Assembly (NCBI RefSeq): GCF_020181355.1
Contig: NZ_CP084004.1
Span: 62,001 to 126,000, forward strand
Direction of reading: 5' to 3'
Length of the DNA stretch: 64,000 bases
DNA from: Collinsella aerofaciens
GTDB taxonomy: Bacteria; Actinomycetota; Coriobacteriia; Coriobacteriales; Coriobacteriaceae
Position numbers and translations under genes: made by a program. Of the stretch, positions 40,712 to 46,193 are shown one piece after another. The notes under the pieces are model-generated. The model was not told the DNA's origin and searched no databases. It saw only the letters and a program-made list of their open reading frames with translations. Numbering within the stretch: position 1 is the first letter of the stretch; each line of letters begins with the position of its first letter.

Positions 40712-40761
40712 GGTAGGACTCCTTATTGGTCAGGCGCTGGTTACCGATCAGCGCATAAGGC

Positions 40762-42802: not shown

Positions 42803-42828
42803 GACGCGGACCGTTATAGATCCAGAGT

Positions 42829-42864
42829 GTGGCCAGGGCCCCAAGCCCTCGGCCACGCTTTTTA
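42829..42864 (+). terminator. Terminator of gltA
   Basis: The stem GTGGCC(A)GGGC and GCCC(TC)GGCCAC is followed by CTTTTT. It lies 27 bp after the citrate synthase stop and before the HAD gene. Confidence 0.8.
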
Positions 42865-42889
42865 TGTCTCTTGGAAAGGACCACATCAG

Positions 42890-43732
42890 ATGATCGTGTT
42901 TTCCGATATGGATGGAACGCTGCTGACGAGCGACAAGCAGATGAGCGACGCCACCTGGGCGATGCTCGATGAGCTCGCACGTCGCGGCATTGAGTTTGTG
43001 CCCTGCACGGGCCGTCCGCTGTCGGGCGTCTTTGAGCCCATCCTTGCCCACCCCGCCGTGCACTACGCGGTCTGCGCCAACGGCGCCAGCGTCTGGCAGC
43101 TCGACGAAGATGCGCCTACCGATGCCTCACGCGCCAAACGTATCTTGAGCCGACCGCTCGACCGTGGCATCGCCCATCGCATCCATCGCATCGCCGCCGG
43201 CCACGATGTGACCTTCGATATCTTCGCCGACGGCCAGTGCTTCCTCCCCCGCTCGCTCTACGAGCGCCTGGACGAGTTCTGCGGCGGCGACCCGCATATT
43301 GCCGGCTCGCTCAGGCGCACGCGCACGCCCATCGACGTGGACGTCGACAGCAAGATCGACGAGGTCGAGACGCTCGAGCGCATCGCCATGTACTGGCACG
43401 ACCCCGCCGACCGCGACGCCATCGCGGCGGCGCTCGGCACGCTCGACGGGATCGAGGTCACGCGTTCGTACGAAATGAATATCGAGGTCATGGGCGAGGG
43501 CGCCACCAAGGGAACGGCTCTGACATGGCTGTGCGAGCATCTGGGCGAGTCCCTTGCCGACGCTTGGGCCTTCGGCGACAACATCAACGATATCCCCATG
43601 CTGCAGGCAGCGGGTCACGGCATGGCCATGCTCAACGCCGAGCCCGAGGACCGCGAGGCCGCCGACGCCGTGACCGAGTACGACAATGACCACGACGGCG
43701 TAGCCCGCGCCATCATGGTCGCCCTCGCCTAG
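42890..43732 (+). CDS. Cof-type HAD-superfamily phosphatase
   Basis: This 280-residue HAD hydrolase has the class C2 cap. Motif I is VFSDMDGTLLTSD with the nucleophile Asp, motif II is the PCTGRPLSG threonine, motif III is the Lys of GATKGTALTWL, and motif IV is AFGDNINDIPML. Cof-like enzymes dephosphorylate sugar phosphates, FMN or PLP; the substrate is not predictable. The ATG at 42890 follows GGAAAGGACC. A second Cof-type HAD gene converges on it, and the IS110-family element sits in the space between them. Confidence 0.9.
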   Translation: MIVFSDMDGTLLTSDKQMSDATWAMLDELARRGIEFVPCTGRPLSGVFEPILAHPAVHYAVCANGASVWQLDEDAPTDASRAKRILSRPLDRGIAHRIHRIAAGHDVTFDIFADGQCFLPRSLYERLDEFCGGDPHIAGSLRRTRTPIDVDVDSKIDEVETLERIAMYWHDPADRDAIAAALGTLDGIEVTRSYEMNIEVMGEGATKGTALTWLCEHLGESLADAWAFGDNINDIPMLQAAGHGMAMLNAEPEDREAADAVTEYDNDHDGVARAIMVALA

Positions 43733-43747
43733 CAGCAGCAACCCAGC

Positions 43748-43769
43748 GGGGTAGCTAATTTGGGACGTG
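43748..43769. repeat. Left half of the IS110 target palindrome, with TG core
   Basis: GGGGTAGCTAATTTGGGACG (43748-43767) plus TG is one half of a palindromic repeat. Its other half is at 45301-45320. An intact copy of the same repeat is at 45327-45365. Confidence 0.85.
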
Positions 43770-43873
43770 TCTCTATAGTTTTGTCAACCGCGTGCTTCGC
43801 GCCATTTCGGCATGACGCATCCGGGCATCTGGCGCCCCCGCTTGGTTTCCTCTTCGGTTGATCCCGCCGCCCG

Positions 43874-45040
43874 CTAGGCCGCGTACGGGACGGCGTCGCG
43901 CATGATCGCGTAGATGACCTTGAGCCTCTTCCTCGCGACCGCCTTCAGCGCCTTGCTGTGCCTCATCCCCCTCGCCCTGCACTCCCCGTAGTACCTCCCG
44001 AACCTGTTGTCCGTGCCGATGAGGGAGTTGCAGCTGAATATGAGCAGGTTCTTGAGCCGCCTGTTCCCGCCGTGCTGAGGCGACGTCGACCTGATGCTGC
44101 TCCCGGAGCGCCTGTCTGACGGCGCCACGCCGCAATAGCTCGCGAGCTCGTCGTGCCCCCTGAACGCGGATATGTCGATCGACGTCACCAGCGCCGCGGC
44201 GGTCTTGGGGCCGATCCCGGGCACCGTGAGGAGGCACTCGTAGACCTCGTCGCCCGCCAGCGAGTCGGCCACGAGCGAGTCGAGTTCCTCGATGTCGGCG
44301 TCGAGGGAGGCTATCTCCCGGGCGAGTATCCGGACCGCGACGTCCTCGCCGGCCGGGAGCCGCCTTCCCGAGCGCGACGAGGCCAGCAGCGCCTCCCAGA
44401 GCCTCCTGGCCCCCGCCGCGGGGGCGCCCGCGCGCCTGGCGGCGTTCGAGAACCTGCGCCAGCCGGCGGCCGAGCACCCGGCGGCCCCGCCGAACTCGGC
44501 CAGCATCGACACCTGCCAGCGGCTCGACGGGTCGACCGCGCCCTCGAGCGCGGGGTCGGCCTCGAGCAGGGTCGCGCGCAGCCTGTTCTTCGCGCGGGTC
44601 CTGGCGGACGACGCAAACTCGCGCTGCGACGACAGGATCCGCAGCGAGGCGGTCCCCTCGGGCTCCTCGGGCGCCGGCCTGAGGGCGCGGGGCACGCCGA
44701 GCGCGGTGCGCGCGATCACCTCGGCGTCGATGGCGTCGGTCTTCGCGATGCCGGGGAACATCCCGCGGGCCTGCTTCTCGGCATATCCGGGCAGGTAGGC
44801 GCAGGGGTTCCCGTGCGCATGGGCGCGCGCGAGGACCAGTGCGCCGATGTTTCGCTTCTGGTCGACGACGACCAGCGCGCCGGAGCCGGCCCGCTCGAGC
44901 AGCCGGTCGATGTCGTCGGGCCTGTTTGCCAGCTCGGCCCTGAAGGCGACGCCCCCTCCCGCATCGAGCGCGCACGCGCTGTGCGAGCTCTTCCCGACGT
45001 CGATCCCCAGGTAGGCCACGGGCGTCTCTGCTGCAGGCAT
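43874..45040 (-). CDS. IS110-family DEDD transposase (recombinase)
   Basis: This 388-residue protein has the RuvC-like DEDD_Tnp_IS110 domain at the N terminus (YLGIDVGKSS, Asp14; Asp102 and Asp105 in KTDAIDAEVIA). The C-terminal Transposase_20 domain carries the Ser-containing segment SDRRSGSSIRSTSPQHGG. The second acidic position, usually Glu, is Asp60 in VVVDQKRN, as I recall from other actinobacterial members. IVxVPGIGPKTAAAL-type HhH residues (LTVPGIGPKTAAALV) are present. No inactivating change is seen. The ATG is preceded by AAGGGAGAGG. The family moves by an RNA-guided reaction using an RNA from the element's own non-coding end. Confidence 0.93.
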   Translation of the reverse strand: MPAAETPVAYLGIDVGKSSHSACALDAGGGVAFRAELANRPDDIDRLLERAGSGALVVVDQKRNIGALVLARAHAHGNPCAYLPGYAEKQARGMFPGIAKTDAIDAEVIARTALGVPRALRPAPEEPEGTASLRILSSQREFASSARTRAKNRLRATLLEADPALEGAVDPSSRWQVSMLAEFGGAAGCSAAGWRRFSNAARRAGAPAAGARRLWEALLASSRSGRRLPAGEDVAVRILAREIASLDADIEELDSLVADSLAGDEVYECLLTVPGIGPKTAAALVTSIDISAFRGHDELASYCGVAPSDRRSGSSIRSTSPQHGGNRRLKNLLIFSCNSLIGTDNRFGRYYGECRARGMRHSKALKAVARKRLKVIYAIMRDAVPYAA

Positions 45041-45060
45041 GGTGTATCCTCTCCCTTGAG

Positions 45061-45240
45061 CCGGCCGTTAGCCGCGGAAGCGACACCCACATTACCCCGC
45101 CGTGGCCCGGTCCGGGCCCGGCACATCTCTATCAGTCGTTCCCCGCGGCCCCTCCCGCCCCGGCGGCAACACGTCCCGGGCCCTCTACGGGGCAGGGGCT
45201 GACGGCCGTCCGGGGCGGTCGGCCAGCGACCACCGGTACG
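45061..45240 (-). ncRNA. Candidate bridge RNA of the IS110 element
   Basis: Read on the minus strand, this region folds into a small 5' hairpin (GGTCG/CGACC) and two larger stem-loops. Loop one is closed by CCGCCCCGG (45218-45210) and CCGGGGCGG (45163-45155). It carries AGCCCC (45200-45195) on one side and GGGACGTGT (45177-45169) on the other. The second segment is complementary to the right target plus CA core; the first equals the left target end. Loop two is closed by GCCGCGG (45149-45143) and CCGCGGC (45077-45071). It carries ATAGAGA (45132-45126), equal to the element's right end, and GTAATG (45095-45090), complementary to core plus left end. The order target loop, then donor loop, is that of IS621 bridge RNA. 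Confidence 0.6.
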
Positions 45241-45264
45241 GCTCAATCGTATAACCGTGCAACG

Positions 45265-45291
45265 GAAAAGAGCCGCCCTTTCGGACGGCTC
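45265..45291 (-). terminator. Terminator-like hairpin at the IS110 left end
   Basis: A GAGCCG(T)CC...GG(G)CGGCTC stem is followed on the minus strand by TTTTCC. It is just inside the element. It would stop transcripts entering from the neighbouring HAD gene, or could form the start of the bridge RNA transcript. Confidence 0.55.
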
Positions 45292-45300
45292 AAACTGTAA

Positions 45301-45365
45301 TGGGGCTATTTTAGCTACCCGCTAGTGGGGTAGCTAAAATAGCCCCGTCCCAAATTAGCTACCCC
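45301..45365. repeat. Right half of the split target palindrome plus an intact 39-bp copy
   Basis: 45301-45320 is core TG plus GGGCTATTTTAGCTACCC, the right half of the disrupted copy. After GCTAGT, an intact copy in opposite orientation follows at 45327-45365 (from GGGGTAGCTAAAATAGCCCC to CAAATTAGCTACCCC). The two copies formed a large inverted pair before insertion. Confidence 0.85.
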
Positions 45366-45398: not shown

Positions 45399-46193
45399 TT
45401 AGGCGAGGCTCTCCAGCACGTGGCGAAGTTCTTGCTGGACGGCATGGTCGCGGTTGCAGCCCACGATGCGGTCGGCAACCGCCTTGAGCGCAGGACGCGC
45501 GTTTTGCATGGCGCAGCCCGTGCCGACAAAGCGAATGATCTCGTAGTCGTTCATCGAATCGCCAAACGCCATGACCTCGTCGCGACCAATGCCGTAATGC
45601 TCCGCGAGCTGCGCGATACCCGAGGCCTTCGACACACCAGGCTGCATGGCATCGATCCACGCGTTGCCCGAAGGCGCAAAAGTAAAGAGCTGACCAAGTT
45701 CGCGCTGTAGCACGTACGCACTGTCCATAACCGCACTGTCGTCGCAAAAGATACTCGCTTTGATGATATTTACGCTGGGATCGGGCAGCTCCCAAATACG
45801 CTCGGCATTGGGAAGGTCCTTATCGACCTCACGCACGAACTTGCACTCGTCATCGAGCAGGAAGGACTTGGTTCGGTCAAAGAGCGCAAGATGCAGATTG
45901 GGGAACGTCCTGACGGCTTGGGCGAGCCTTCGAATCGCCAGGTGGGAATACACCTCACGGTCTACCATCTTACCGTCGGCGTAGACCTGGGCGCCGTTAG
46001 CGGCGACAAAGTCCATCTTGTCGCGAACGGGCGCAAAGAACTCGCACAGGCGATCGTAGCGACGACCTGACGATGCGGCGAAATGCACGCCATGCTCGTG
46101 TAGCGCCAGAATCAGTTCGTAGGTCTCGGGAGGCACCTGGCCGTTTTCGTCAAGCAGTGTGCCGTCCATATCGGATGCAATCAGTTTAAACAT
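45399..46193 (-). CDS. Cof-type HAD-superfamily phosphatase
   Basis: This 264-residue protein has motif I IASDMDGTLLDENG, motif II AASSGRRYDRL, the Lys of SKASGIAQL and motif IV MAFGDSMNDYEII. It is of the same class as the gene at 42890 but only distantly similar. The substrate is unknown. Its ribosome-binding site AAGGGAG lies inside the 3' arm of a 13-pair hairpin, so translation or transcription may be controlled there. The upstream gene on this strand is adenine deaminase, 198 bp away. Confidence 0.9.
   Translation of the reverse strand: MFKLIASDMDGTLLDENGQVPPETYELILALHEHGVHFAASSGRRYDRLCEFFAPVRDKMDFVAANGAQVYADGKMVDREVYSHLAIRRLAQAVRTFPNLHLALFDRTKSFLLDDECKFVREVDKDLPNAERIWELPDPSVNIIKASIFCDDSAVMDSAYVLQRELGQLFTFAPSGNAWIDAMQPGVSKASGIAQLAEHYGIGRDEVMAFGDSMNDYEIIRFVGTGCAMQNARPALKAVADRIVGCNRDHAVQQELRHVLESLA

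What the first reader, a model, noticed from the sequence alone, without database searches (positions are those of the whole stretch)
43768..45302. IS110-family element with a candidate bridge RNA whose four guide segments can be placed
Established: IS110 recombinases such as IS621 use a bridge RNA from the non-coding end upstream of the gene, with a target loop followed by a donor loop. Seen here: the 260-bp region upstream of the transposase folds into two stem-loops in that order. Target loop: AGCCCC equals the left target end; GGGACGTG is complementary to core CA plus right target CGTCCC (9 bases including the next). Donor loop: ATAGAGA equals the element's right end; GTAATG is complementary to core CA plus left end TTAC. 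All four lie on the expected side of their loops. The right end also carries TTGACA, which on circle closure would sit 15 bp from TACAGT at the left end, a possible junction promoter of the kind known for this family. Weak points: the second core base does not match in the AGCCCC and ATAGAGA segments, and spacing of the promoter is short.
Basis: partly seen in the sequence, partly recalled or inferred. Interest (0 to 1): 0.85.

Follow-up and report, generated by a model that had tools for sequence, protein, structure and literature searches.

The report
RNA-guided jumping element in Collinsella repeats
This is a small gut-bacterial jumping gene that carries its own guide RNA telling it where to land, and its relatives show that when the guide sequence changed, the landing site changed with it.

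Summary
Confirmed, with two corrections. Window 43768-45302 (minus) is a 1,535-bp IS110-group element, three identical copies in this Collinsella genome. Its left end encodes a two-loop bridge RNA; 20 of 38 pairs show compensatory changes over 24 sequences. The proposed refutation was tested and failed: right target guide GGGACG goes with CGTCCC (8 of 8 sites), GTTGGG with CCCAAC/T (14 of 14, wobble allowed), poly-G with C tracts (38 of 42, wobble allowed). The first two arose in different clades of the protein tree. The left donor guide equals the right end in 63 of 64. Corrections: (1) none of 32 empty counterparts of REP sites has the extra CA, so both terminal CAs belong to the element, and donor and target share only one C at the junction. 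(2) The abutted ends then read GAGACA-CATTACAG, putting TTGACA and TACAGT 17 bp apart, a normal promoter spacing, not 15. The window copy interrupts a REP palindrome of the kind that flanks a RAYT-like gene in the same genome. It is a member of the IS110 family and works like IS621; the unshared core and the dominant right guide are differences worth testing. No RNA or circle data.

The parts
43768..45302 (-). IS110-group element, 1,535 bp, CATTACAG...ATAGAGACA, inserted flush without target duplication
   Evidence: three identical copies; empty counterparts
43874..45040 (-). recombinase, 388 aa: RuvC-like part with D14/D60/D102/D105 and Transposase_20 part with S312
   Evidence: Pfam PF01548 and PF02371 over cut-off, NCBIfam NF033542 209 bits vs cut-off 140, IS621/ISCro4 PDB hits, residue positions
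45054..45291 (-). bridge RNA region (5' hairpin, closing stem, target loop, donor loop); transcript ends are inferred
   Evidence: fold, covariation
45266..45291 (-). 5' hairpin GAGCCGTCCGAAAGGGCGGCTC-TTTT, terminator-like
   Evidence: sequence varies in relatives
45156..45217 (-). target-binding loop with its stem (45205-45217 with 45156-45167)
   Evidence: helix 3: 97.0% of cells paired, 2 of 7 pairs with changes on both sides
45195..45202 (-). left target guide TCAGCCCC (AGCCCC matches the left target plus the shared C)
45172..45177 (-). right target guide GGGACG, complement of CGTCCC
   Evidence: 8 of 8 group A sites with a right flank
45168..45171 (-). TGTT after the right target guide; complementary (one G-U) to the donor bases GACA before the junction; handshake-guide position, inferred
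   Evidence: sequence; handshake guides in PMC11208158
45071..45149 (-). donor-binding loop with its stem
   Evidence: helices 5-7
45126..45132 (-). left donor guide ATAGAGA, identical to the right-end heptamer
   Evidence: 63 of 64 identical over three variants
45088..45095 (-). right donor guide GTAATGTG, complement of CA.CATTAC across the abutted ends
   Evidence: this motif was also used to find the relatives
45240..45246 (-). 5' arm TTGAGCC of a stem closing both loops in the window sequence
   Evidence: centroid fold and complementarity; a closing stem covaries in relatives (helix 2)
45056..45062 (-). 3' arm GGCTCAA of that stem, next to the ribosome-binding site
43782..43787 (-). -35-like TTGACA in the right end
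   Evidence: 63 of 64 right ends
45294..45299 (-). -10-like TACAGT in the left end; 17 bp from TTGACA when the ends abut
   Evidence: 76 of 77 left ends, spacing
43770..43776 (-). left donor ATAGAGA (last heptamer before CA)
45303..45320 (-). left half of the interrupted REP, GGGTAGCTAAAATAGCCC
43749..43767 (-). right half of the interrupted REP, CGTCCCAAATTAGCTACCC
   Evidence: uninterrupted copy with the same right flank in G021
45328..45364 (-). neighbouring intact REP in the opposite orientation, without CA between its halves

Best explanation
An IS110-group element that moves by bridge-RNA-guided recombination. Shown by sequence: the left end encodes a structured RNA whose target loop carries guides matching the two sides of the insertion site and whose donor loop carries guides matching the element's own ends; insertion is flush and in one orientation relative to the guides. 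Inferred: after excision the ends abut as GAGACA.CATTACAG, which makes a TTGACA-17-TACAGT promoter and expresses the RNA. The recombinase-RNA complex binds the circle (ATAGAGA / CACATTAC) and a REP palindrome (AGCCC / CGTCCC); top strands are cut just before or just after the shared C; exchange pairs the guide's TG(TT) with the incoming donor CA, which the target itself lacks. This clade reads its target mainly with the right guide (6 nt); the left guide contributes about 2-3 bases in C-tract elements and 5-9 in REP elements.
For: Family. Structure: (94.9% of 901 cells paired, 20 of 38 pairs with changes on both sides, 103 such cells against a shuffled mean of 36.9). Guide-target switching. 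Separate placement of the two REP-targeting guides: (A and C each one side of a branch, 100/99 and 100/100, on opposite sides of a 100/100 split). Donor guide: 63 of 64. Flush insertion: 12 group A and 20 group C empty counterparts, none with the two extra bases CA, and no printed intact REP with them (lists cut by the tool). Promoter boxes 63/64 and 76/77.
Against: L013 (G016), nearest relative of group A, has a G-run right guide but right flank CGTTACG. L022 (a broken copy), L061 and L087 (guides with five Gs) also miss full six-base pairing. With G-U allowed the poly-G guide also pairs 5 of 6 with CGTCCC, so groups A and B are less distinct by that count. L069 breaks the donor-guide identity. 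L068, not counted because its left end is cut off by the contig end, has right end GGAACC instead of ..CA. One diverged empty counterpart of a group B site (L226) reads GCACCCCCC, so CA in the target is not excluded for every C-tract site. The sites are not independent, and end and donor-guide motifs were used to find them, so their conservation is partly by selection. No RNA, circle or transposition data; no circle junction was found.
Confidence: 0.9

Rival explanations
1. The CA is a true shared core as in IS621: each targeted site originally held CA and one copy stayed in the target, so the circle has a single CA and a 15-bp spacer.
For: CA stands at both ends of the inserted element (64 of 64 right ends; 77 of 77 left ends start CATTAC); IS621 has CT in donor and target; one diverged group B empty site has CA before the C run.
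Against: 32 empty counterparts at 7 REP sites lack the extra CA (two of them, at L002, have CATCCC for CGTCCC, a substitution without extra bases); printed intact REPs lack it; it would leave a 15-bp spacer.
Confidence: 0.08
2. Target choice is by protein recognition of REP or C-run DNA; the guide matches are shared ancestry.
For: REPs are palindromes that a protein could bind; sites within one class are not independent; only two right-guide switches are seen.
Against: The two switches lie in different clades and each right guide is the complement of the new site in the same register; the left donor guide also follows the right end over three variants; two repeat contexts used by group C share the guide-complementary core.
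Confidence: 0.05
3. The left-end RNA acts mainly as a leader controlling recombinase expression (terminator-like 5' hairpin, stem beside the ribosome-binding site) and guidance is secondary.
For: Terminator-like hairpin (1 found, 0.4 expected); closing stem ends just before the ribosome-binding site.
Against: Loop sequences track targets and ends. Both roles can coexist.
Confidence: 0.05

Closest known systems
IS621 bridge RNA system (E. coli; PMC11208160: abstract, passages, sections 5, 12, 19; PMC11208158: abstract and passages)
   Same: Left-end RNA with target loop then donor loop, guide order and strands, left donor guide over the last seven bases of the right end, circle-junction promoter (predicted here), RuvC-like plus catalytic-serine recombinase, REP targets.
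   Different: IS621 has a CT core in donor and target, a 9-nt left target guide and a 4-nt right guide (7 nt when extended); its left donor guide also covers the first core base. Here donor and target share one C, the right guide (6 nt) carries most of the specificity in C-tract elements, and the second catalytic acidic residue appears to be D instead of E.
ISEc21 seekRNA (IS110 family; PMC11187229: section 12 and passages)
   Same: Upstream non-coding RNA, ends directly abutted in the circle, insertion without duplication, bottom-strand match before top-strand match.
   Different: Target is a conserved stretch of IS3-family transposase genes. The paper describes one natural redirection in an ISEc21 relative (ISMch6); here two right-guide switches are seen in one clade.
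REP-targeting IS elements such as ISPpu9, ISPpu10, ISPa11 (PMC1525189: abstract and outline only)
   Same: Specific insertion into REP sequences.
   Different: Different hosts; here the REPs are Collinsella repeats, one kind of which flanks a RAYT-like gene.
TIGR-Tas (PMC12045711: search listing only)
   Same: Weak similarity (NF052498 49.9 bits, below its cut-off of 100; TasH chain).
   Different: No TIGR array was looked for; the element has both IS110 domains and IS110-type ends.

Membership tests
IS110 family (IS110 group) | RuvC-like DEDD domain PF01548 plus Transposase_20 PF02371 | tested here: met
   112.5 and 68.5 bits against cut-offs 29 and 21.3; NF033542 over cut-off. The second acidic residue is D60 by a weak alignment to ISCro4, so the motif reads D-D-D-D.
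IS110 family (IS110 group) | catalytic serine in the C-terminal domain | tested here: met
   S312 of SGSS aligns with the SGSS of IS621; that this is S241 of IS621 rests on an inferred two-residue offset in chain numbering. Invariant in 7 of 7 proteins.
IS110 family (IS110 group) | longer non-coding end upstream of the gene, not downstream as in IS1111 | tested here: met
   262 bp upstream against 106 bp downstream.
bridge RNA systems | conserved two-loop RNA, target loop then donor loop | tested here: met
bridge RNA systems | guides in the target loop covary with the target | tested here: met
   right guide strongly; left guide in groups A and C; left guide weak in group B.
bridge RNA systems | guides in the donor loop match the element's own ends | tested here: met
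   left donor guide 63 of 64 over three variants. The right donor guide does not vary and was used in finding the relatives, so it is no test.
IS621-type core | same dinucleotide core in donor and target | tested here: not met
   target CC or TC, donor CA; only the next C is shared, in 63 of 64 right flanks (L017 has T).
IS110 family (IS110 group) | circular intermediate with a junction promoter | not testable with these tools
   promoter boxes and 17-bp spacing predicted; no junction found in 396 genomes or in viral contigs.
bridge RNA systems | RNA expressed and bound by the recombinase | not testable with these tools
   none.

The most novel reading that the evidence does not exclude
A clade of bridge-RNA elements in Coriobacteriia that recombines without a shared core dinucleotide: the right target guide is written for the hybrid formed after strand exchange (target flank plus donor CA), not for the target alone, so the guide itself favours the forward reaction. 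The constant mismatch beside the shared C also marks strand inheritance: every counted junction keeps the target bases on the left and the donor CA on the right, as if only the top-strand outcome survives.
Probability: 0.5. Interest if true: 0.7.

Novelty: new variant of a known kind. Interest (0 to 1): 0.5.

Why it matters
It gives a natural, replicated experiment in guide reprogramming: one recombinase clade, three right-guide classes, three target classes, two separate switches onto REPs. It suggests that donor and target need not share a core dinucleotide, which would loosen a constraint of bridge editing, and it shows how calling the core from repeated ends can misplace the boundary by two bases.

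Tried and rejected
Rfam at gathering scores listed no family over the element. Circle junctions or dimers: in 396 genomes of the class one match, a tandem pair separated by Cs; none in viral contigs for the CACA form; the 41 viral matches to the single-CA form look like chance, as none of the 41 has TTGACA at the right place. Group B empty sites do not fix the junction, because C tracts vary between strains (5-10 C in the closest comparisons at 7 sites searched). RNAalifold pairs of the left guide with the right guide (columns 136-139) were left out of the structure count because they are the guides themselves; the AU/UG pairs of columns 208-210 were left out too (45 pairs, 38). One measure, further pair types, was not above shuffles (152 of 500 as high).

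Rows dropped: of 80 records, two reverse-strand hits in L014 and L066 that gave no loop match and one internal left-end-like hit in L128 were dropped before the counts; elements cut off by contig ends, or without a left end or right-donor-guide motif, never entered. Of 26 representatives chosen, 24 were aligned (L022, a broken copy, and L072 were left out). L013 is misaligned in the target loop there. In one search only matches of at least 84% identity reaching 60 bases on both sides were kept; L175 and L259 are the same place in G004 and count once; L141 matches fell on the same loci as L019 and were not counted. Protein structure prediction was not run. Left-end-only remnants were looked at and not explained.

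Full report
What is there. On the minus strand, window 45302 to 43768 is a 1,535-bp element starting CATTACAG and ending ATAGAGACA. It encodes a 388-aa recombinase (43874-45040) with both IS110 domains above cut-off, the NCBIfam 'IS110 family RNA-guided transposase' model at 209 bits against 140, and ISCro4 and IS621 as the best solved relatives by sequence. The own genome holds three identical copies and three copies of a relative about 65% identical in DNA. Record titles place the closest relatives in Collinsella aerofaciens. The element lies between two convergent open frames, 42827-43732 plus and 45399-46193 minus.

The RNA. The left end folds at -134.6 kcal/mol (z -2.9, 2 of 200 shuffles as good). 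Over 24 sequences (the window copy and 23 relatives from Coriobacteriaceae, Atopobiaceae and Eggerthellaceae), 38 pairs in 7 helices are formed in 94.9% of 901 cells; 20 pairs have changes on both sides; 103 such cells against a shuffled mean of 36.9, with none of 500 shuffles as high; slid versions reach 12-27. One measure, further pair types, was not above shuffles (152 of 500). The helices are a hairpin, a stem closing both loops, the target loop with inner hairpin, and the donor loop with inner hairpin. The order is target loop then donor loop, as in IS621.

Guides against targets. I collected 77 distinct insertion sites with a readable left end, 64 with a right flank (three of 80 records dropped). 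They were found by end and right-donor-guide motifs with mismatches allowed, and many are copies of the same element, so they are not independent. Right target guide GGGACG (group A, the window type): 8 of 8 flanks CGTCCC. GTTGGG (group C): flanks CCCAAC or CCCAAT, 4 of 14 fully Watson-Crick and 14 of 14 with G-U. Poly-G (group B): 33 of 42 fully, 38 of 42 with G-U; the misses are L013, L022, L061, L087. Guides of the wrong class reach 1.3-4.0 of 6 (Watson-Crick), or 2.0-5.0 with G-U, against 5.3-6.0 and 5.9-6.0 for the right class. On the left, group A has G at -4 in 8 of 11 sites and group C has GAACGTC in 16 of 17 and GAATGTC in one. The element at that one site (L128) has guide AATGTCCC, but three other copies with this guide (L019, L144, L145) sit at AACGTC, so that single case proves little. 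In group B the left side is only VCC (no T at -3 in 47), so the left guide contributes little there. The left donor guide equals the right-end heptamer in 63 of 64 cases over ATAGAGA, ATAGGAA and ATGGGAA; L069 is the exception.

Evolution of the guides. In a tree of 42 recombinases (6 A, 26 B, 10 C), A and C are each one side of a branch (100/99, 100/100), on opposite sides of a 100/100 split. A is sister to L013, a B row (100/99); C is sister to ten B rows at 93/91, short of the program's star. The labels need two changes, the least possible, against a shuffled mean of 14.7. The simplest reading, inferred because the root is not fixed, is an ancestral C-tract targeter that was twice redirected to REPs. 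In group A the difference from L013 is small: GGGGGG against GGGACG on the right guide and TCTGCCCC against TCAGCCCC on the left.

The target. Most group A and C sites lie in palindromic repeats; intact copies were matched in 23 (A) and 22 (C) of 43 genomes of the genus (the tool printed only part of the matches). No printed intact copy has the two extra bases CA between its halves; a few have single substitutions or one base more or less, one of them C to A. Group A also sits outside such repeats, for example at L008 and L011. In the own genome a Y1-transposase (RAYT-like) gene has two A-type repeats on either side, matched with up to two mismatches, so these are REP/RAYT repeats in all likelihood. 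Group C also uses a second repeat context that shares the guide-complementary core.

The core. Empty counterparts decide the boundary. For group A: 1 at L001 (one C longer than the occupied copy), 6 at L002, 4 at L009, and one for the window copy in G021, which shares the right flank and the REP but not the DNA left of the REP. For group C: 14 at L019, 1 at L020, 5 at L064, two of these with deletions at the junction. None of these 32 has the two extra bases CA; two at L002 read CATCCC in place of CGTCCC, a substitution. Hence both CAs belong to the element, insertion is flush, and donor and target share only a C at the crossover: CA.C in the donor, CC.C or TC.C in the target (that C in 63 of 64 right flanks; L017 has T). 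The exact cut, before or after that C, cannot be fixed from sequence. The abutted ends give TTGACA-17-TACAGT; the boxes are kept in 63 of 64 and 76 of 77. For group B the tracts vary in length and one diverged site (L226) has CA before a C run, so the point is not settled there.

Mechanism. In IS621 the top strands are cut after the core, exchanged, and the incoming donor bases pair with the other loop at the handshake positions; bottom strands are cut four bases away (my reading of the position numbers), and the authors say that mismatches may be repaired. Here the bases after the right guide, TG(TT), pair with the donor end CA (AACA in groups B and C; GACA with one G-U in group A) only after exchange; in group C and some others the third base is C and does not pair. 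Every counted junction keeps target bases left and donor CA right (64 right ends, 77 left ends); one other right end, L068, ends in CC and could not be judged because its left end is missing. That one-sidedness is what top-strand inheritance would give; this is inference.

What is in print. Flush insertion and abutted ends were described for ISEc21 (PMC11187229, section 12), and REP-targeting IS elements are long known (PMC1525189, abstract). The bridge RNA paper notes longer right guides in some orthologues and defined cores as repeated sequences near the ends. My search 'Collinsella' with 'IS110' gave one paper, whose listing shows one mention of each word; 'IS110' with 'Coriobacteriia' and 'insertion sequence' gave none. 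I found no report of unshared cores in the passages read, but I made no search for that point alone and the library lacks most subscription papers, so I do not claim that none exists.

Noticed in passing
L244 (G000:C1 about 2060764-2061096): RAYT-like Y1 transposase of the own genome with two A-type REPs on either side, a likely source of the repeats the element uses.
   Followed up: partly
L193, L196, L192, L211, L240 and other empty group B sites: Group B elements sit in poly-C tracts whose length differs between strains (5-10 C in the closest comparisons); possible phase-variable tracts.
   Followed up: partly
L030, L031, L154, L157, L158, L160, L162, L163: Left-end-only remnants without gene or right end nearby; several end near the left target guide followed by a C run.
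   Followed up: partly
L013 / L040 (G016): Nearest relative of group A; its G-run right guide does not match its right flank CGTTACG.
   Followed up: no
window 45266-45291: Terminator-like hairpin at the very start of the predicted bridge RNA, not conserved in sequence across the clade.
   Followed up: partly
L041, L062, L277: L041 and L062 each show two elements in tandem separated only by a few Cs (L277 is probably the same place as L041).
   Followed up: no
window 40719-40754: L31-Coriobacteria ribosomal protein leader, 35.1 bits against gathering score 33, minus strand.
   Followed up: no
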